Source of the DNA: Fibrobacter sp. UWH6
GTDB lineage: Bacteria > Fibrobacterota > Fibrobacteria > Fibrobacterales > Fibrobacteraceae
Direction of reading: 5' to 3'
NCBI RefSeq assembly: GCF_900142465.1
Contig: NZ_FRAX01000010.1
Span: forward strand, 62,001 to 126,000
Length of the DNA stretch: 64,000 nt
The stretch's first letter is position 1. Every line of letters begins with the position of its first letter. Positions 650 to 8,679 of the stretch are shown in pieces. Below the pieces are notes generated by a model. It was not told where the DNA came from. It made no database searches and saw nothing but the letters and a program-made list of their open reading frames with translations. The translations under genes were made by a program, and so were the position numbers.

Positions 650-775
650 GGCATTTTTCGTCAAAAATCAGTTTTTTCGTGCTTTCTAAACCAGTTTGTT
701 TGTTTTTGTTTATATTTCCCTTATAAGACTTCCTGTACCAATACAGTGAAATCAACATTAAGAAGGATGCAAACA

Positions 776-1072
776 ATGGTTATTAATAAGATTCAAAAAG
801 AAGACTCAATCGTTCTTGCACCGGAAGGATTCCTGGATACCGCAAACGCCCCCGCTTTTGAAACCGAAATGGAAGCCGCTTCCAACGAAACCAAGAATCT
901 CATTGTGGATTTTGCCAAAGTCGAATACATTTCCTCTTCCGGTCTCCGCGTCCTGCTCAAGATTCAGAAAAAGATGAATGGTTGCGGCAGCCAGAAACTC
1001 ATCAATGTCAGCGACAACGTTAAGGAAGTGTTTGAACTGACCGGTTTCGTCGACATCCTGGACATTGCCTAA
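776..1072 (+). CDS. STAS-domain anti-sigma factor antagonist (SpoIIAA/RsbV-like)
   Basis: A single STAS domain of 98 residues. STAS proteins of this type bind an RsbW-like kinase in their unphosphorylated form and release its partner; phosphorylation of a Ser in the switch motif turns them off. Here the switch is ISSSGLRVLL at residues 52-61, with the candidate phosphoserine at 54-55. I start at ATG 776 because AGAAGG at 761-766 lies nine bases upstream. The upstream in-frame GTG at 746 and the ATG at 767 lack proper spacing. The next gene encodes the matching ATP-binding partner, and the peptide-export genes follow on the same strand with short gaps, so this looks like the first gene of that operon. 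The family assignment is firm; the target controlled by the pair is unknown, since no sigma factor or PP2C phosphatase lies beside it. Confidence 0.85.
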   Translation: MVINKIQKEDSIVLAPEGFLDTANAPAFETEMEAASNETKNLIVDFAKVEYISSSGLRVLLKIQKKMNGCGSQKLINVSDNVKEVFELTGFVDILDIA

Positions 1073-1109
1073 AGAAAGCTATATCATATAGTCTGAAGGA
1101 AGGCTCAAC

Positions 1110-1511
1110 ATGGCTAGCGAGAAAAAAACGTTTCCTGTTCAAAAGGAAAGTCTTTCTGACGTCCAGGAATTCGTATCCCTTTGGGCAGAAAACAATGACA
1201 TAGGAATGAAGATTTCTACAAAGCTCTCCATTTGTGCAGACGAAGTTGTGAGCAACGTCGTTTTCTATAGCGGCGCAACAGAGCTGGAAATCACTTGCAG
1301 CAAGGAAAATGGCATGGTAACCATGTCTCTCCGCGACAACGGCAAGGCCTTTAATCCTCTTACCGAGGTAAAGGAACCTGACACAACAGCCAGCGCCGAA
1401 GAACGGGAAATTGGAGGCCTTGGAATTTTCATGGTTAAGAAGATGATGAATTCCGTTTCTTACGAAAGGGTTCAGGAGTCAAACGTCTTGACCATGACAA
1501 TCGCCATTTAA
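1110..1511 (+). CDS. RsbW/SpoIIAB-like ATP-binding protein (HATPase_c_2)
   Basis: A stand-alone GHKL ATPase domain of 133 residues, the usual size of anti-sigma serine kinases. The N box is DEVVSNVVFYS (Glu45, Asn49), the G1 box is DNGKAF (Asp76-Gly78), and a glycine-rich GGLGIFMVK lid lies at about 102-110. Such proteins phosphorylate a STAS partner and sequester a sigma factor or another target. The STAS gene directly upstream (37 bases) is the obvious partner. A GGAAGG ribosome-binding site precedes ATG 1110. The next gene, a 58-residue peptide precursor, starts 30 bases downstream, so regulation and peptide export appear co-transcribed. It could also act purely as a protein-binding switch without a sigma factor. 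Confidence 0.85.
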   Translation: MASEKKTFPVQKESLSDVQEFVSLWAENNDIGMKISTKLSICADEVVSNVVFYSGATELEITCSKENGMVTMSLRDNGKAFNPLTEVKEPDTTASAEEREIGGLGIFMVKKMMNSVSYERVQESNVLTMTIAI

Positions 1512-1541
1512 TACAATAGCCAACGTATAAGGAGAAATATT

Positions 1542-1718
1542 ATGAGCACCAACGAAAAAATCAATCAGGAAATCTCCGAAGACGAACTGGATCAGGTTTC
1601 CGGAGGCAACGCAGCAAACACCATCGGCGCAGGAACATTCGTTGATGACGCCGTAAAGGCAGCCAAGGCAGCCATTGACCAGCTAAAGAAAAGCCTTCCT
1701 GGAATTGACAGATTCTAA
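1542..1718 (+). CDS. Double-glycine leader peptide precursor (putative bacteriocin or signalling peptide)
   Basis: A 58-codon gene with a strong site, AAGGAGA, nine bases before ATG 1542. The first 22 residues form a classic double-glycine leader: an acidic helical stretch ending in ISEDELDQVSGG, where C39 peptidases cleave after Gly22. The predicted 36-residue core starts NAANTIGAGTF and continues into an Ala/Lys/Asp helix, AVKAAKAAIDQLKKSLPGI, ending in DRF. It has no Cys, Ser is rare, and net charge is about +1, so no thioether or disulfide chemistry is evident. No modification enzyme is encoded nearby. The stop codon abuts the start codon of the HlyD-like adaptor at 1719, and the C39 transporter follows, which makes this the obvious cargo. 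Whether the product kills, signals or modifies the envelope is not visible. Confidence 0.8.
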   Translation: MSTNEKINQEISEDELDQVSGGNAANTIGAGTFVDDAVKAAKAAIDQLKKSLPGIDRF

Positions 1719-2228
1719 ATGTCTCTTTTTAGAAAAACAGCTCTAGAAAAAATATCCTCCCCCGAACAGCTAGACAAGATGATCGTGGCAATTTCGCCAT
1801 CATCCTGGATAGCGATCGTGGGCGGTTTTGTTATTGTATTCTGCGTGGCCCTCTGGTCATTTTTAGGAACGCTCCCCCAAAGCATTACTGCCGAGGGAGT
1901 CTTTCTTGATTCCGACGAATCTACCCTGGTCTGCTTTATTCCCGTAAACGAAAGCTACGACATCAAGGCCGGTCAAAAGGCGATCATTTCCACCCAGTTA
2001 CAACTGCTGAACGGAACAGTACGTCAAGTCAAGCCCTACACCGCATCAGATGAAGAGCTTGTAGAAAATCTCCGAAAAAAAGTTGAAGGCAACTCCAGCA
2101 CATCCGTCTTCGCACAAGTGGAAATCCAGACCACAGAGGCCAACAAGCTCAAGGGTACTTCCGCAAGAGCCGAAATCATCACTAAGGAAGTGGCCCCCAT
2201 AGAATTTCTTATTTCCGGGGCAAAATAA
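1719..2228 (+). CDS. NHLM-type HlyD-like secretion adaptor, short form
   Basis: A 169-residue protein with a cytoplasmic N-terminus (LFRKTALEKISSPEQLD), one membrane segment at about 29-50 and a small periplasmic domain. The N-terminal SPEQLD followed by SPSSWIA is characteristic of the HlyD-family protein of NHLM bacteriocin export systems. Typical members of this family are much longer and carry a coiled-coil hairpin reaching for an outer-membrane channel; here only a beta-rich lipoyl/barrel-like part can be accommodated. It starts immediately after the precursor stop codon and its own stop overlaps the next start (TAATG), so translation is coupled on both sides. It probably scaffolds the two ABC exporters in the inner membrane. 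The truncation is intact coding sequence, not a frameshift: the neighbouring frame goes straight into the transporter. Confidence 0.75.
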   Translation: MSLFRKTALEKISSPEQLDKMIVAISPSSWIAIVGGFVIVFCVALWSFLGTLPQSITAEGVFLDSDESTLVCFIPVNESYDIKAGQKAIISTQLQLLNGTVRQVKPYTASDEELVENLRKKVEGNSSTSVFAQVEIQTTEANKLKGTSARAEIITKEVAPIEFLISGAK

Positions 2229-4366
2229 TGGCAGTCGCCAAAACGCCCACAGTGCTACAAATGGAGGCCACCGAATGCGGCGCGGCCTCGCTTTGCATGA
2301 TTACCGCCTTTTACGGATTGCACATTCCTCTAGAGCAGATGCGCATCGAGACGGGAGTTTCCCGAGACGGCAGTAAGGCGAGCAACATTCTAAAGGCGGC
2401 CCGCAAATTCAATTTCGAGGCCAAGGGATACAAGCGTAGTTTTGAAGGTCTTCTTCAGACAGAAGGCCCCTGCATTATTCACTGGAACTTCAACCACTTT
2501 GTAGTTTATGAGGGCACCCGCGGAAAGTTCGCATACATAAACGATCCCGCCATGGGCAAGCGCAAGCTCACCTTGCAAGAGTTAGACGAAAGCTACACGG
2601 GAATCGTACTTACCTTTACCCCCACCGAAAATTTTCAGAAGGTCTCCCTCAAAAAAAGTTTCATAGACCTCCTGAAGAAACGTCTGGCAGGCGAAAAAAA
2701 ATCATTGCTTTCCCTCATTGCAGTGGGCCTTCTGCTGATTTTGCCTGGCGCACTGATTCCAGCATTTTCTGCATTCTTTGTGGACCAGGTTCTTGCGGTC
2801 CAGAATAATCAATGGCTTCACTTTTTGCTGGGCGCCATGTTCTGCACTTTGATATTCAGCTCGATACTGAACTATTACAGGGAAAAAATTCTTATTCGTT
2901 TGCGGAACAAAAAGAGCCTCCTGTCCACCTACAGCTTTATAAATCATCTGTTCAGACTGCCCATGGGATTCTTCAGTCAGAGGTACTCGGCAGACATCGC
3001 CAACCGAATAGACAATAACGAATCCGTAAACAGTTTCCTGTACAACCAGTTTGCAGAAACCATCCTGAATGTTTTCGTAGCCCTGTTCTATTTTATCATC
3101 CTCGCAAAGCTTAGCGTGGTGCTGGCCCTGATCGGGCTAGTCAACGTCCTGTTCAATTCCCTGATGATGAAACTGCAGGCAAAATCCGTTTCTAACCTGG
3201 CTCAACGTTACCAGCAGGACTTTGGAAAATTGGCAGGTTCCCTGTCTGCAGGAATTTCACTGACCAGTACATTGAAGGCTTCTGGCGCCGAGGCGCGCTA
3301 CATGGGTATACTGCAAGGCCATTACGCCAAAATGGCCAATGTCGGAAATCAGCTGCAAAAGAAGCAGGAATCCCTTTCTACAATTCCCGAAATTTCAGGA
3401 ATCGTTTCAAGCATTCTCGTATTGATGATTGGCGCTCTATTTGTTATTGACGGATCCATGACTGCAGGCACACTCCTCGCCTCATCAACGCTTCTAGCCT
3501 CATTCATGTCTCCCATGAACGACCTGCTGACTTTCTACAATCAAGTCCAGACCCTTAAGGCCGACTTGAATCGAGTTGACGACATAGAAAGCTACCCCGA
3601 AGACGAGACCTTCAAGGAAACCGAAAAGATCCATATGGAAACAAAACTTTCAGGACGTCTGGAGTTGCGAAACATTTCCTACGGTTACAACACCTTGGAG
3701 CCAGCCCTTGTGGAGGATTTCTGTTTTAAACTGAGCAGTGGGCAGTCCATTGCATTGGTGGGTTCATCGGGCAGCGGAAAGTCAACCGTCTCAAAAATCG
3801 TCAGCGGCCTATTCGCGCCCTGGAATGGCGAAATGCTTTGCGACGACATTCCTGTCAGCAAGATTCCGCAAGACGTTCTTTCGGCAAGTATCTCTACTGT
3901 AAGCCAGCAGATTTCCCTTTTCAACGGAACCATTCGCGACAATTTGACCATGTGGAATTCTACAACGCAGGAAAGCGACATTCTGCAAGCCGCCAAGGAC
4001 GCCTGCATCCACGACATGATTATCTCAAAGCCAGGCGCATACGATTTCAAACTGGCTGAAGGCGGAGCAAATATTTCGGGTGGAGAACGTCAGCGTCTTG
4101 AAATTGCACGAGCCCTGGTAAAGAATCCCACCATCCTTATTCTGGATGAGGCCACCAGCGCTCTCGACCCCATTACCGAAAAGAAGATTCTCGACAATAT
4201 CAAACGACGCGGCTGTACATGTCTAATTGTCGCCCACAGACTTTCCACTATTCGTGATGCCGATGAAATCCTGGTCATGGAGCACGGGAAAATCATTCAA
4301 AGGGGCAACCACGAATCACTAGTAAATGCAGAAGGAACCTATCAAACCCTAGTAAGGAGCATGTAA
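2228..4366 (+). CDS. C39 peptidase-containing ABC exporter (NHLM ABC1 / PCAT)
   Basis: A 712-residue peptidase-containing ABC transporter. Residues 1-135 are a C39 cysteine protease with all catalytic residues visible: Gln11 and Cys17 in VLQMEATECGAASLC, His in HWNFNHFVVYEG, Asp in YINDPAMG. It should cut the double-glycine leader of the peptide at 1542. Residues 160-430 carry about six membrane helices. The ATPase follows, with Walker A GSSGSGKST at 512-520, signature ISGGERQR near 616, Walker B LILDEATSALD and an H-loop AHRLSTI. It works as a dimer in the inner membrane, coupling leader removal with export. One base overlaps the upstream gene; the stop codon is directly followed by the start of the second ABC exporter. 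The pairing of two such exporters with an HlyD-like protein defines NHLM systems. Confidence 0.92.
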   Translation: MAVAKTPTVLQMEATECGAASLCMITAFYGLHIPLEQMRIETGVSRDGSKASNILKAARKFNFEAKGYKRSFEGLLQTEGPCIIHWNFNHFVVYEGTRGKFAYINDPAMGKRKLTLQELDESYTGIVLTFTPTENFQKVSLKKSFIDLLKKRLAGEKKSLLSLIAVGLLLILPGALIPAFSAFFVDQVLAVQNNQWLHFLLGAMFCTLIFSSILNYYREKILIRLRNKKSLLSTYSFINHLFRLPMGFFSQRYSADIANRIDNNESVNSFLYNQFAETILNVFVALFYFIILAKLSVVLALIGLVNVLFNSLMMKLQAKSVSNLAQRYQQDFGKLAGSLSAGISLTSTLKASGAEARYMGILQGHYAKMANVGNQLQKKQESLSTIPEISGIVSSILVLMIGALFVIDGSMTAGTLLASSTLLASFMSPMNDLLTFYNQVQTLKADLNRVDDIESYPEDETFKETEKIHMETKLSGRLELRNISYGYNTLEPALVEDFCFKLSSGQSIALVGSSGSGKSTVSKIVSGLFAPWNGEMLCDDIPVSKIPQDVLSASISTVSQQISLFNGTIRDNLTMWNSTTQESDILQAAKDACIHDMIISKPGAYDFKLAEGGANISGGERQRLEIARALVKNPTILILDEATSALDPITEKKILDNIKRRGCTCLIVAHRLSTIRDADEILVMEHGKIIQRGNHESLVNAEGTYQTLVRSM

Positions 4367-6913
4367 ATGGAAATCTCTTTACAGAGCGGCAAATTGTATT
4401 TGACTAGCGAGCCTACCATTTTTACCGTGGTAGAAGGGTCTGCCCTTATCTACATCGTCCCAATTGAAGAAAATGCCGCAGGGCGACGAATCCTCCTCTG
4501 TGAACTTTCTGCGGGCGAACAGTTCCCATCTTTCTGCATCGATTCCGAATTACTTGGCCACTGGAGTTTTGGCATTTCTACCCTTGAACACGTAAAGCTC
4601 GAAGGTAACTCCGCATCCGCCGAAGACATATCCAATGCCAACGCCACATTCGCAAAAAAAATCGGAATCAGATACTTTGATGAAGATTCCTACAACGAAA
4701 TGGTTGTAGAAAAATACAGGCTGAACCTCATCAAGGAAGAAGGTGCCATTTACGCCACCAGCGAAGAACAGCGCAAGACCACTGCAAAAAGTTTCCAGAT
4801 TATCTATGACTTTTTCGAAAAGCGCGAAAATCAGAAACTCCTGTCGAGCCGCACGGGCAACAACCTTTACGACGCGATTCACAGTTTGGGAATTCACCAA
4901 GGTTTTTCAATTGCTTCTATCGACCGTATTCATGAAAGCTGCGGCAAGCGTTTTGAGCTGAACGACATAACTCGAATAAGCCATGTAACCCTCCGTCCGG
5001 TCATTCTGGAAGCGGACTGGTTCAAAAAGGATTGCGGTTCTTTCCTGGGATATTCCTCTGACGGCGAGCCCTTGGCATTTCTGTGTTACGGCCATGGAGT
5101 CTACAAAGTATGCAACCCGGCAACAGGTGAAATTTCTGCCGTAACGGAATCAAACGCTCAGCAAATCTTACCTAGTGCATTTGTTTTCTATAGACCGTTC
5201 CCCAACAAGAAAATTGGTTTAAGGGACTTGATATTGTTTGGATTGAAAGACATCCAGAAAAGAGACATTTTCACATTCGCATTACTCTCGCTCATATGCA
5301 CATGCATCGGCATGTTCCTGCCGGCATTAAACCAGATTATCTTCGATAAGGTCATCCCCCTGCAGAACAAGAACGAACTCATTCAAATTTGTTTCGTCGT
5401 ACTTGTTTTTGCCGTAGGCAGCGCCGCCTTCGCCCTGGTCAAAAATTTTGCCATGCTTCGTAGCATCAACACGATGAAAATCAGCATACAGAGTGCCGTT
5501 TTCGATCGACTGTTTTCTTTAAGCGAAAGTTTCATTCAAAAATTCCCTAGCGGAGAATTGACCATCAAGGCACTGCAACCAGTTAGAATTTTCAGTCTTC
5601 TTTCTAACGGTTTATTTAGAACGCTCCTTGGCGGAATTTTCTCGGTTTTCTTTTTCTGCCAGATGGTTTCTATATCTTCCTCGCTGGCCCTCATAGGAGT
5701 CGGATTGACAGTCCTTATCGCTGTCGTGGCGGTTATCATTTGCCATCGGCAGATTGATGTCGAGCGCATGATCATCAGAAGCGGAAATCAAGGTTCCAGC
5801 TGGATGATCCAGGCTATCAACGGCATTTCAAACATCAGGATCGCAAACGCCGGCAACCGCTTCATTCTTGAATATCTGAAGTTCTATGCAGAACAGAAGA
5901 AAATGGAACAGAAACAGGAATGGACGCAAAATAAGTTCAACATATTTATTAACGCGCTCCAAATCTTTGAAAGCATCTGCTTTTTCTATCTGGCCAGCCA
6001 CACAGAAACGTTGTCCACCGGTCAGTTCCTGGCATTCGTTTCTGCATTCGGATTGTTCTCCAACGCCATCATCCTCTGCCTTGTAGAGGCATTCTCTGCC
6101 GTAACGGCAATCCCCATGTTTGACGAATGTAAAGTCATTCTAGATGAACTTCCCGAAACTTCTGACGATACCCTACTGCCAGGCAAAATCGCAGGCGACA
6201 TTGATGTAAACAACGTCAGTTTTTCTTACCCGGGTGCCGAAACCCCGACACTAAAAAATATCAACCTCAACATAAGGGAAGGGGAATACATCGGCATCGT
6301 TGGCAGTTCCGGTAGCGGAAAATCTACCCTATTAAAATTACTGCTTGGATTCGAGAAGCCTACCCTTGGAAAAATTTATTACAGCAAGAACGACATCGAC
6401 AAAATTGACAAGAAGGAACTTCGAAAATATTTTGGTGTGGTCTTGCAAGATGACAAGCTGATTTCAGGATCTATTTTTGAAAACATTACTGTAGCCCATC
6501 CAAAGACAACTCTAGATCGAGTTCAAGAAGTAATTAAAAATGTCGGCCTAGAAAAAGACATCCAGGAAATGCCCATGGGCATTCATACTGTTCTTTCGGG
6601 AAGCTGTTCTACGATCTCGGGTGGACAACAGCAAAGAATTCAAATTGCCAGAGCCATTGTCGGCAAACCCAAAGTTCTATTCTTTGACGAAGCGACATCA
6701 GCCCTGGACAACCAAACTCAGGCCATCGTCGGCGAGACCCTTTCAAAAATGAAATGCACCAAGATTGTCGTAGCCCATCGCCTAAGCACGGTCATTCACT
6801 GCGACAGAATCATCGTTGTAAACAAGGGTGAAATTGTTGAATCCGGATCCTACGAAGAGCTTATGGGCAAGAAAGGTTTCTTTTACGATTTATCATCTAG
6901 ACAGAATTTATGA
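4367..6913 (+). CDS. NHLM-type ABC exporter, second subunit (ABC2)
   Basis: An 848-residue ABC exporter. The first 290 residues are an extra cytoplasmic domain with no C39 catalytic triad. Its beginning (LTSEPTIFTVVEGSALIYI) resembles the cupin/cyclic-nucleotide-like domain seen in NHLM ABC2 proteins. Membrane helices occupy about 300-580. The ATPase has Walker A GSSGSGKST at about 646-654, Q-loop GVVLQDD, signature ISGGQQQR near 750, Walker B VLFFDEATSALD and AHRLSTV. It begins right after the stop codon of the peptidase exporter, so the two probably work as a heteromeric or sequential export machine. Its own end overlaps the phosphatase gene by four bases (ATGA). The role of the N-terminal domain, perhaps precursor recognition, is unknown. 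Confidence 0.88.
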   Translation: MEISLQSGKLYLTSEPTIFTVVEGSALIYIVPIEENAAGRRILLCELSAGEQFPSFCIDSELLGHWSFGISTLEHVKLEGNSASAEDISNANATFAKKIGIRYFDEDSYNEMVVEKYRLNLIKEEGAIYATSEEQRKTTAKSFQIIYDFFEKRENQKLLSSRTGNNLYDAIHSLGIHQGFSIASIDRIHESCGKRFELNDITRISHVTLRPVILEADWFKKDCGSFLGYSSDGEPLAFLCYGHGVYKVCNPATGEISAVTESNAQQILPSAFVFYRPFPNKKIGLRDLILFGLKDIQKRDIFTFALLSLICTCIGMFLPALNQIIFDKVIPLQNKNELIQICFVVLVFAVGSAAFALVKNFAMLRSINTMKISIQSAVFDRLFSLSESFIQKFPSGELTIKALQPVRIFSLLSNGLFRTLLGGIFSVFFFCQMVSISSSLALIGVGLTVLIAVVAVIICHRQIDVERMIIRSGNQGSSWMIQAINGISNIRIANAGNRFILEYLKFYAEQKKMEQKQEWTQNKFNIFINALQIFESICFFYLASHTETLSTGQFLAFVSAFGLFSNAIILCLVEAFSAVTAIPMFDECKVILDELPETSDDTLLPGKIAGDIDVNNVSFSYPGAETPTLKNINLNIREGEYIGIVGSSGSGKSTLLKLLLGFEKPTLGKIYYSKNDIDKIDKKELRKYFGVVLQDDKLISGSIFENITVAHPKTTLDRVQEVIKNVGLEKDIQEMPMGIHTVLSGSCSTISGGQQQRIQIARAIVGKPKVLFFDEATSALDNQTQAIVGETLSKMKCTKIVVAHRLSTVIHCDRIIVVNKGEIVESGSYEELMGKKGFFYDLSSRQNL

Positions 6914-7857
6914 TATTGAAAAATATTGCAAAAATGGTTCTTACGACAATGATCGCGGCGAACATTCTCGCCTGCAACAGCGAAGTAGAACACAAGGAAA
7001 CAGCGGTCTTAAAACACACGGAAAGAGTTATGAAACTAGAAAACGTGGCTAACGTAAGAGAGCTGGGAGGAATCAAGACTTCCAACGGAAAGCAGGTAAA
7101 GTCAAACGTTCTTTTCCGGTCGGCCAACCTGGCTAAAGCCAGCGAAAATGACGTCAAGTTTTTGCAAGGTTTGAACCTCAAACTGATTTGCGATCTCCGC
7201 ACGGAACAGGAACGCGAAAATAATCTGGACGTTGAAATTTCTGGCGCGCAGAATATATGGTTTAACGTACTGGGGGCGCTTCCCCAAAAAACATCAAGCG
7301 TCAAGCAAACCGAGGAAGGCGTTAAAATCGGGAAGGCTATGAACCCCAACACATTCAACGAAGAAGCGGCAGCACATCTCGCCGACTTCGTGCAAACGGG
7401 TGTCTTTGACAGCGTCATGGAAAACCTGTACGTAGGTCTAGTCGCCAAGGAGCACGCCCAGCAGGAATACTCAAGAATGTTCGATTCCATTCTCGCCACC
7501 CAGGGCGGCACCATTTTGTGGCACTGTTCCCAAGGCAAGGACCGCGCAGGACTGGCTTCAGTTTTCATTCTTTCGGCCCTTGGCGTAGACAGCACATCTA
7601 TCATGGAAGATTTCGCAAAGTCCAACGAATCCTATCAAACCATGGTTGACGTCGCTCTCAAAGTCGCCCAGGATAAGGGACTTTCCAAGGAGCATCAAGG
7701 TGTTATCCAGGCAATGCTCGGCGTGAACCCCTCTTATATGAAACGCGCCCTGGATTATATCAACGCAAACTTCGGTTCCATGGAAGACTATATGGAGCAG
7801 AAAATCGGCCTAACCGCAGAAAAGAGAGAACTCCTTCGTTCTTTCTATCTAGAATAG
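6910..7857 (+). CDS. Tyrosine-phosphatase-fold lipoprotein (Y_phosphatase3-like)
   Basis: A 315-residue protein with a lipoprotein signal (NILAC, Cys22), hence anchored outside the cytoplasm. The family hallmarks are ENVANVRELGG, FRSANL, CDLRTEQE and the P-loop HCSQGKDRAG at 205-214, with nucleophile Cys206 and Arg212 (CX5R). These belong to bacterial tyrosine/dual-specificity phosphatases of the PF13350 type, some of which also act on phosphoinositides. The start codon overlaps the stop of the ABC2 gene (ATGA), so it is co-translated with the export system. Because it is a lipoprotein, it is unlikely to dephosphorylate the cytoplasmic STAS protein; an envelope or foreign substrate is more plausible. 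Its 3' end overlaps the convergent trmO gene by nine bases. Some of the phosphatase core may tolerate substitutions, but the catalytic loop is complete. Confidence 0.85.
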   Translation: MILKNIAKMVLTTMIAANILACNSEVEHKETAVLKHTERVMKLENVANVRELGGIKTSNGKQVKSNVLFRSANLAKASENDVKFLQGLNLKLICDLRTEQERENNLDVEISGAQNIWFNVLGALPQKTSSVKQTEEGVKIGKAMNPNTFNEEAAAHLADFVQTGVFDSVMENLYVGLVAKEHAQQEYSRMFDSILATQGGTILWHCSQGKDRAGLASVFILSALGVDSTSIMEDFAKSNESYQTMVDVALKVAQDKGLSKEHQGVIQAMLGVNPSYMKRALDYINANFGSMEDYMEQKIGLTAEKRELLRSFYLE

Positions 7858-8679
7858 AGTTCGTTGAACGCAGGAAGCTTCTGCAAAGGCAACAAGAAAG
7901 TCTCGGTGCAGTTGCTTATCGCCATACTTATCAGGCGAACCTGTTTCAAGATCTTCAGCGGAATAACCGCTGGAAATTTTTTCTAGGGTGACACGCTGCG
8001 CAGATTCATCATAGGAAAATGCTATTCGGAATGTGCGGTAGGCAAGCACCCCTGTTTTTGCATTTTCATCCAAAGTCAAACGTCGACGAGTGCCGTCAAA
8101 AACACCATCGCTAAAACCGCCTCGGCCCAACTGCACCTGAGAAAAGCTGTACAGGTCAAAGGTACTGCGTTCAGCAATCCACTCGTTCTGTTTAACAAAA
8201 AAGTCAGACGCACTCACCTGCCATTTTTCCCCATCCTGTTCGTCAACCCAGCCCGCTTTCGCGTTAGGGAACGCATCGGCCATGGGGATGTAGGGTTTAA
8301 TGTCCAGCACGGGAGTTTCGTTTAGCAAATCCGCTTCATCCACGTAAAGGGTCAATCCCTCCACTTTCAGCAAGCGAACACAGCTAAGGCCAATGGAATT
8401 GGGGCGATAGGGGCTTCGGCTTGCAAAGGTTCCTACGCGGTCCTTGCCCTTGGGCGGTACAGGAGGCCTTGTCGTGGGGCGCCAACCTTCATTTTCGTGA
8501 AATTGGAAGATGACCCAGATACGTTCAAAGCCATCCAGGTCCCGCAAGGCCGTTTCAAAATTCTGACCTTTACTCAGTTCAATGCGGCCCGGATGCCCAG
8601 CGAAAAGTCGACCCTGTCGGGGAGCCTCGTACTTGTATACAGCATCGCCAAAAAATGTACCAATGGGAGTCACTTCCAT
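7849..8679 (-). CDS. trmO: tRNA (N6-threonylcarbamoyladenosine(37)-N6)-methyltransferase TrmO
   Basis: A 276-residue member of the TsaA/YaeB (TrmO) family, which methylates N6 of t6A37 in tRNA-Thr with S-adenosylmethionine. Matching segments are TPIGTF at the N-terminus, RLFAGHPGRIEL, LDGFERIWVIFQFHEN, RVGTFASRSPYRPNSIGLS and LDIKPYIP, which cover the beta-barrel SAM-binding domain. The C-terminal 110 residues correspond to the dimer/auxiliary part found in the longer E. coli-like members. The gene stands alone on the - strand, tail to tail with the phosphatase gene, and faces away from the TAXI gene with a 58-base divergent gap. Nothing unusual is seen apart from the small 3' overlap. Confidence 0.88.
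   Translation of the reverse strand: MEVTPIGTFFGDAVYKYEAPRQGRLFAGHPGRIELSKGQNFETALRDLDGFERIWVIFQFHENEGWRPTTRPPVPPKGKDRVGTFASRSPYRPNSIGLSCVRLLKVEGLTLYVDEADLLNETPVLDIKPYIPMADAFPNAKAGWVDEQDGEKWQVSASDFFVKQNEWIAERSTFDLYSFSQVQLGRGGFSDGVFDGTRRRLTLDENAKTGVLAYRTFRIAFSYDESAQRVTLEKISSGYSAEDLETGSPDKYGDKQLHRDFLVAFAEASCVQRTLF

What the first reader, a model, noticed from the sequence alone, without database searches (positions are those of the whole stretch)
776..7857. NHLM-type peptide export operon with a small unmodified double-glycine precursor
In 7 kb and one direction lie a STAS protein, an RsbW-like ATPase, a 58-residue precursor ending its leader in DQVSGG, a HlyD-like adaptor, a C39-ABC exporter, a second NHLM-type ABC exporter and a lipoprotein phosphatase. 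From the precursor on, every gene abuts or overlaps the next. Seen directly: the precursor (1542-1718), its ribosome site, the C39 triad and the gene couplings. Known: the HlyD/ABC1/ABC2 trio defines NHLM systems, whose usual cargo has long nitrile-hydratase-like or Nif11-like leaders and modification enzymes. Here the leader is only 22 residues and no modification enzyme is seen. Inference: an unmodified 36-residue helical peptide, bacteriocin-like or signalling, is exported under partner-switch control. The precursor is short enough to be missed by gene callers.
Basis: partly seen in the sequence, partly recalled or inferred. Interest (0 to 1): 0.85.

Follow-up and report, generated by a model that had tools for sequence, protein, structure and literature searches.

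The report
Peptide exporter with a trimmed adaptor
A seven-gene block, found in only one of 80 related species, appears to cut and export a tiny unmodified peptide through an unusually trimmed version of a known bacterial peptide exporter, with its own on/off switch proteins; short peptides, the trimmed adaptor and the switch genes each recur beside this kind of exporter in unrelated bacteria.

Summary
Confirmed: 776-7857 holds STAS, RsbW-like ATPase, a 58-aa double-glycine precursor, a HlyD-like adaptor, a C39-ABC exporter, a second ABC exporter and a lipoprotein phosphatase, with the couplings described. Both ABC proteins pass the NHLM cut-offs. (1) The adaptor is trimmed: 169 aa, keeping the transmembrane helix and membrane-proximal beta-barrel but lacking the lipoyl/alpha-hairpin part. 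Such short adaptors recur in eight other NHLM loci (same phylum and Bacillota), never with the periplasmic binding protein that accompanies 50 of 59 longer-adaptor loci. (2) The block is one unit: in relatives the two flanking genes touch; here seven genes lie between them; a close relative keeps a broken copy of the STAS gene there. The 22-residue leader is not unique: short-leader peptides accompany NHLM exporters in G009 (same position), G547, G861 and a Bradyrhizobium plasmid. STAS/HATPase genes sit beside other NHLM loci, and this genome's only SpoIIE phosphatase lies elsewhere. Most likely: a switch-controlled export system for an unmodified 36-residue helical peptide. Its activity, its route across an outer membrane and the target of the switch are unknown. 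New variant of a known kind.

The parts
776..1072 (+). Single-domain STAS protein (98 aa), RsbV/SpoIIAA-like; serine before Gly in ISSSG (Ser55) intact
   Evidence: Pfam STAS 56.3 bits (cut-off 22.6); TIGR00377 63.9 bits (cut-off 53.45); one of four STAS hits in the genome, the others lying in open frames of 222-641 aa
1110..1511 (+). HATPase_c_2 kinase/anti-sigma-like protein (133 aa), RsbW-like
   Evidence: Pfam HATPase_c_2 72.7 bits (cut-off 27.4); 48% identical to the HATPase of a STAS-SpoIIE-HATPase cluster in G090
1531..1534 (+). Ribosome-binding site GGAG of the precursor gene, 7 nt before ATG
   Evidence: sequence
1542..1718 (+). 58-aa double-glycine precursor: 22-aa leader ending DQVSGG, 36-aa core NAANTIGAGTFVDDAVKAAKAAIDQLKKSLPGIDRF
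   Evidence: TIGR01847 over cut-off; none in 60 simulated windows; same position and leader type in G009 (L040 5097-5312)
1719..2228 (+). Hairpin-less NHLM HlyD (169 aa): N-terminal helix, TM helix about 29-49, membrane-proximal beta-barrel
   Evidence: TIGR03794 matches model positions 1-56 only; profile alignment to full-length NHLM HlyD, P 99.9%, E 1e-32, with one large gap; model pLDDT 71, BesA Z 11.9, MacA Z about 10.7, HlyD of 7sgr aligned over 140 residues
2228..4366 (+). C39 peptidase-ABC exporter (712 aa), NHLM ABC1; C17, H90, D106
   Evidence: TIGR03796 949 bits (cut-off 853); closest solved full-length C39-ABC proteins 4ry2 (PCAT1) and ComA 8hf7
4367..6913 (+). Peptidase-less ABC exporter (848 aa), NHLM ABC2
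   Evidence: TIGR03797 741 bits (cut-off 709)
6910..7857 (+). Probable lipoprotein, Y_phosphatase3 family (315 aa), CX5R motif HCSQGKDRAG, lipobox ILAC; last gene of the block
   Evidence: Pfam Y_phosphatase3 209.6 bits; no relative seen at the other NHLM loci examined
650..7848 (.). Inserted block between the RmlD-like gene (ends 649) and TrmO (7849-8679, minus strand; overlaps the end of the phosphatase gene)
   Evidence: empty site in L128, L129, L147; G+C 46.4% versus 51.5% downstream

Best explanation
A seven-gene export unit that was inserted as one block. The C39 domain of ABC1 cuts the precursor after GG (residue 22) and the ABC1/ABC2 pair moves the 36-residue, cysteine-free, probably helical and unmodified peptide across the inner membrane. 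The trimmed HlyD keeps the membrane anchor and the barrel that sits on the ABC transporter but has lost the hairpin that docks to a TolC channel, so the peptide is most likely released into the periplasm or leaves by another route. The STAS and HATPase proteins, first in the operon, act as a dedicated partner switch (kinase plus phosphorylatable antagonist), probably reset by the single SpoIIE-type phosphatase encoded elsewhere. Shown by sequence: gene content, couplings, family assignments, loss of the hairpin region, presence as one block between two genes that touch in relatives. Inferred: cleavage, export, periplasmic release, control by the switch, lack of modification. The peptide's activity is unknown; toxin-like or signalling are both open.
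For: Both ABC proteins pass NHLM cut-offs. Precursor leader passes the bacteriocin_sig cut-off, is beyond chance, and G009 has a short-leader precursor directly before its short HlyD. HlyD trimming; recurrence in G547, G685, G569, G861, G793, G008, G009, G011. One unit: flanking genes touch in G060, G088, G086; a STAS copy with 47 residues missing remains in G090 at this site. STAS/HATPase/SpoIIE beside other NHLM loci: G861 (precursor-STAS-...-MatE::HATPase-SpoIIE), G534, G537, and near G009's. One SpoIIE in this genome, 52% identical to that of G090's STAS-SpoIIE-HATPase cluster; the operon's STAS and HATPase are 52% and 48% identical to the same cluster.
Against: No transcript, peptide or cleavage data. 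One genome of 80 in the genus has the locus, so the precursor core cannot be tested for conservation. SpoIIE is common in the genus (63 of 80), so its presence is weak evidence. Longer HlyD proteins also occur in Bacillota loci without an outer-membrane channel gene nearby, so hairpin loss need not change the route. No sigma factor or other switch target was identified. Modification enzymes encoded far away were not searched for.
Confidence: 0.62

Rival explanations
1. Ordinary NHLM RiPP exporter: the core is modified by an enzyme encoded elsewhere, and the trimmed HlyD works together with a full adaptor and TolC from another locus.
For: Both ABC proteins are canonical NHLM. Related NHLM loci carry Nif11-type precursors, and a LanM protein is annotated beside the NHLM genes of Spirosoma.
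Against: The core has no Cys and few Ser/Thr; no modification enzyme among the nearest genes.
Confidence: 0.2
2. The STAS/HATPase pair has nothing to do with export; it is a neighbour that happens to sit upstream.
For: STAS genes are frequent in some relatives (11-13 per genome in G008, G009 and G011), so nearness there can be chance. The STAS relic in G090 stands without any exporter gene, so STAS may have been at this site before the exporter.
Against: Here they are co-directional, within 40 bases of each other and of the precursor, and this is the only small stand-alone STAS of the genome. They are absent together with the exporter from the empty sites. A like arrangement occurs in G861 and G534.
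Confidence: 0.2
3. The STAS protein controls the exporter directly after translation, as MlaB does for the MlaF ATPase, rather than controlling transcription.
For: MlaB is a STAS protein that binds an ABC transporter (PMC7367683 abstract); no DNA-binding domain is present in either protein; no sigma factor lies in the operon.
Against: No interaction data; classical partner switches act through sigma factors, and CapK/CapS act through a DNA-binding STAS protein (PMC13373217).
Confidence: 0.15
4. The precursor frame is a chance frame and the exporter serves a peptide encoded elsewhere.
For: Core not found elsewhere; single genome. The only other hit in the genome is weak (E 0.11).
Against: RBS, exact abutment with the next gene, TIGR01847 over cut-off, none in 60 simulated windows, equal position in G009.
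Confidence: 0.05

Closest known systems
NHLM/NHLP-type export system (TIGR03794/03796/03797; Haft, Basu and Mitchell 2010, PMC2887384)
   Same: HlyD, C39-ABC1 and ABC2 genes in this order, double-glycine precursor next to them
   Different: HlyD lacks the lipoyl/hairpin region and scores below cut-off; leader 22 aa and not NHLP or Nif11; no modification enzyme nearby; STAS, HATPase and phosphatase in the same block
Peptidase-containing ABC transporters PCAT1 and ComA with class II bacteriocin-type precursors
   Same: C39 domain fused to an ABC exporter; GG leader of about 20 residues
   Different: here a two-ABC NHLM pair with a trimmed HlyD adaptor
Partner-switch modules RsbV/RsbW/RsbU (SpoIIAA/AB/E)
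   Same: STAS with conserved serine, HATPase_c_2; a SpoIIE phosphatase in the genome
   Different: no phosphatase of that kind and no sigma factor in the operon; linked to a peptide exporter
CapK/CapS controllers of immune operons (PMC13373217)
   Same: a kinase of this fold and a STAS protein encoded upstream of the operon they control
   Different: CapK and CapS carry HTH domains; the proteins here do not

Membership tests
NHLM/NHLP export system | ABC1 with C39 domain over the TIGR03796 cut-off | tested here: met
   949.4 vs 853.3 bits
NHLM/NHLP export system | ABC2 over the TIGR03797 cut-off | tested here: met
   741.2 vs 709.4 bits
NHLM/NHLP export system | HlyD over the TIGR03794 cut-off (full-length adaptor) | tested here: not met
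   45.8 vs 156.2 bits, model positions 1-56 only; homologous but with the middle of the protein missing
NHLM/NHLP export system | precursor with nitrile-hydratase-like or Nif11-like leader | tested here: not met
   no such hit for the precursor in NCBIfam or Pfam
NHLM/NHLP export system | modification enzyme in the cluster (usual, not strictly defining) | tested here: not met
   none within the seven genes or among the nine nearest genes examined; rest of genome not searched
Double-glycine (class II bacteriocin-type) precursor | short acidic leader ending GG | tested here: met
   TIGR01847 17.0 vs 15.7 bits
Double-glycine (class II bacteriocin-type) precursor | cleavage after GG by a C39 protease | not testable with these tools
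   C39 domain with intact C17, H90, D106 is in the operon; cleavage needs a bench test
Bacteriocin_IIc (PF10439) | gathering score | tested here: not met
   17.1 vs 27.1 bits
RsbV/RsbW-type partner switch | STAS antagonist with phosphorylatable serine | tested here: met
   TIGR00377 over cut-off; ISSSG motif read in the sequence, phosphorylation not tested
RsbV/RsbW-type partner switch | HATPase_c_2 serine kinase | tested here: met
   72.7 vs 27.4 bits; kinase activity not tested
RsbV/RsbW-type partner switch | SpoIIE/PP2C phosphatase | tested here: inconclusive
   none in the operon; one in the genome on contig C29; pairing not shown
RsbV/RsbW-type partner switch | cognate sigma factor or other target | not tested
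   no target sought genome-wide
TolC-dependent membrane fusion proteins (HlyD/MacA) | alpha-helical hairpin and lipoyl domain | tested here: not met
   absent in alignment and in the predicted model

The most novel reading that the evidence does not exclude
A distinct branch of NHLM exporters, found in at least two phyla, has shed the periplasmic binding protein and the TolC-docking half of its adaptor, handles short-leader unmodified peptides, and is repeatedly put under STAS/HATPase partner-switch control, possibly acting directly on the transporter.
Probability: 0.3. Interest if true: 0.7.

Novelty: new variant of a known kind. Interest (0 to 1): 0.52.

Why it matters
NHLM exporters are widely taken as markers of modified peptides with long leaders. 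This locus and its relatives show a trimmed form that handles short-leader peptides, which genome miners that look for NHLP or Nif11 leaders or modification enzymes would pass over. The repeated coupling to a partner switch makes it testable how such export is turned on, and the missing hairpin asks where the peptide goes in a cell with an outer membrane.

Tried and rejected
Chance precursor: rejected by simulation and by position. Short leader as unique to this locus: rejected, found elsewhere, including a Bradyrhizobium plasmid with a full-length HlyD. A single origin of the trimmed adaptor including the window: neither shown nor rejected (AU p 0.08, window on a long branch). SpoIIE as a specific companion of the operon: weak, since 63 of 80 genus genomes have one. 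Defence-system link: no PADLOC hit. The phosphatase as a general NHLM part: no relative at the other loci. The HATPase hit at L153 is a 359-aa ABC ATPase, so HATPase near short-adaptor loci counts 3, not 4. The Bacillota locus L004 held no NHLM pair, but its genome served as a centre for the search. A search of rumen papers for a Fibrobacter bacteriocin gave nothing on this system.
Full report
OBSERVATION. The seven frames, their couplings, the RBS and the C39 residues are as described. With a strict leader pattern the precursor is the only frame of its kind on both strands of the 64-kb window, and none arose in 60 simulated windows. Its leader passes the curated cut-off of the generic bacteriocin leader model TIGR01847 (17.0 vs 15.7 bits) but no bacteriocin family model. 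No modification enzyme is among the seven genes or the nine nearest neighbours examined, which include RNA-methyltransferase-like, MFS, metallo-beta-lactamase, NUDIX, RmlD-like, TrmO, NMT1-like, sodium/glutamate symporter and peptide release factor genes.

THE EXPORTER. ABC1 (949 bits) and ABC2 (741 bits) pass the NHLM equivalog cut-offs of 853 and 709. The HlyD-like protein does not (45.8 vs 156.2) and matches only positions 1-56 of a 421-position model. Compared as a profile with full-length NHLM HlyD proteins it aligns from end to end at 99.9% probability, with one large gap where the lipoyl domain and helical hairpin should be. The predicted model (pLDDT 71) has an N-terminal helix, a transmembrane helix and a beta-barrel, and the closest solved folds are membrane fusion proteins: BesA Z 11.9, MacA and EmrA about 10-11, and HlyD from the HlyB/D complex 7sgr, aligned over 140 residues including the membrane part.

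THE TRIMMED ADAPTOR RECURS. Adaptors of 165-200 aa stand before ABC1 in G008, G009 and G011 (same phylum) and in G547, G685, G569, G861 and G793 (Bacillota). None of the nine trimmed loci has the periplasmic binding protein that lies beside 50 of 59 loci with adaptors of 260 aa or more (Fisher p 1e-6, uncorrected for relatedness). On the ABC1 trees the other trimmed loci cluster together (support 100; in the first tree with L191, whose adaptor is a 297-aa protein further upstream), while the window sits on a long branch; one origin including the window is not rejected (AU p 0.08). Intermediate adaptors of 260-311 aa also exist.

SHORT LEADERS RECUR. G009 has a 71-aa precursor with a 26-aa leader directly before its trimmed HlyD, the same place as here. 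G547 has five with 21-24-aa leaders, G861 one with a 28-aa leader, and a Bradyrhizobium plasmid several with 16-aa leaders beside a full-length HlyD. Diverse precursors outside the NHLP and Nif11 families beside such exporters are also known in cyanobacteria (PMC3140520). The short leader is therefore not a defining novelty.

THE BLOCK IS ONE UNIT. In 80 genomes of the genus only this one has the exporter (two further hits are 28% identical general ABC proteins). In G060, G088 and G086 the RmlD-like gene and TrmO are direct neighbours; here the block lies exactly between them, with lower G+C than the downstream sequence (46.4% vs 51.5%). In G090 a 51-aa copy of the STAS gene, identical to the window's at 35 of the 46 residues of its two ends and missing 47 residues including the likely phosphorylation site, remains at this place with no exporter. 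So the block was either gained before these two species split and lost in G090, or built behind a STAS gene already there.

THE SWITCH. The genome has four STAS hits; only the window's is a small stand-alone protein. It has one SpoIIE phosphatase, on contig C29, without STAS or HATPase neighbours. In G090 the three types form one cluster, and the window's STAS, its HATPase and the C29 SpoIIE are 52%, 48% and 52% identical to those three, which fits a split module; but SpoIIE is common in the genus. STAS, HATPase and SpoIIE genes adjoin NHLM genes in G861, G534 and G537 and lie near them in G009. STAS lies within 8 kb of 4 of 9 trimmed-adaptor loci and 6 of 59 others (p 0.02, uncorrected); in G008 and G009, which have 11-13 STAS genes each, nearness may be chance. 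A published precedent for a STAS/kinase pair controlling its own operon is CapK/CapS; for a STAS protein acting on an ABC transporter, MlaB.

MECHANISM AND LIMITS. Cutting by C39, export by the ABC pair and control by the switch follow from family knowledge and are not shown here. The core (net charge +1, no Cys, peak helical moment about 0.6; helix predicted from residue 16 to 51 of the precursor at low confidence) is compatible with a membrane-active or a signalling peptide. No paper found in the searches describes hairpin-less NHLM adaptors or STAS-linked NHLM loci, but the library is partial.

VERDICT. A real, coherent export unit; a new variant of the NHLM kind rather than a strict member, because the adaptor and leader criteria fail. 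Interest 0.52.

Noticed in passing
L062-L118 (Treponemataceae and a Bacillota class): A periplasmic branched-chain-amino-acid-type binding protein (Peripla_BP_6) lies in almost every NHLM operon with a full-length HlyD, though it is not part of the published three-gene definition.
   Followed up: partly
L153 6063-8429 (G547): Five short-leader precursors whose cores carry Cys pairs followed by spaced His residues, like small zinc-binding modules; possibly an exported zinc-finger-like peptide family.
   Followed up: no
L040 5097-5312 (G009): Precursor core with CxxC...CxxC resembling a zinc ribbon (weak Pfam hit), directly before a trimmed HlyD.
   Followed up: no
L219 1191-5570 (G090) and L220 596-5886 (G861): A transporter-HATPase protein (MatE-HATPase fusion in G861, likely the same in G090) next to STAS and SpoIIE genes and, in G090, a separate HATPase; in G861 it adjoins an NHLM exporter and its precursor.
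   Followed up: partly
L041, L042, L044 (G055, G014, G025): Four-gene sisters (binding protein, HlyD of 289-311 aa, two ABC proteins of about 580 and 660 aa) in which the ABC1 relative is too short to hold the C39 domain.
   Followed up: no
L043 1810-2575 (G001): Tiny precursor-like frames of 28-32 aa with 19-23-aa GG leaders near an NHLM ABC2 gene.
   Followed up: no
Junction of the RmlD-like gene and TrmO in the genus (L152, L154, L155, L156): An insertion hot spot: the genes touch in some species and are separated by different inserts of 1.5-3.4 kb in others.
   Followed up: partly
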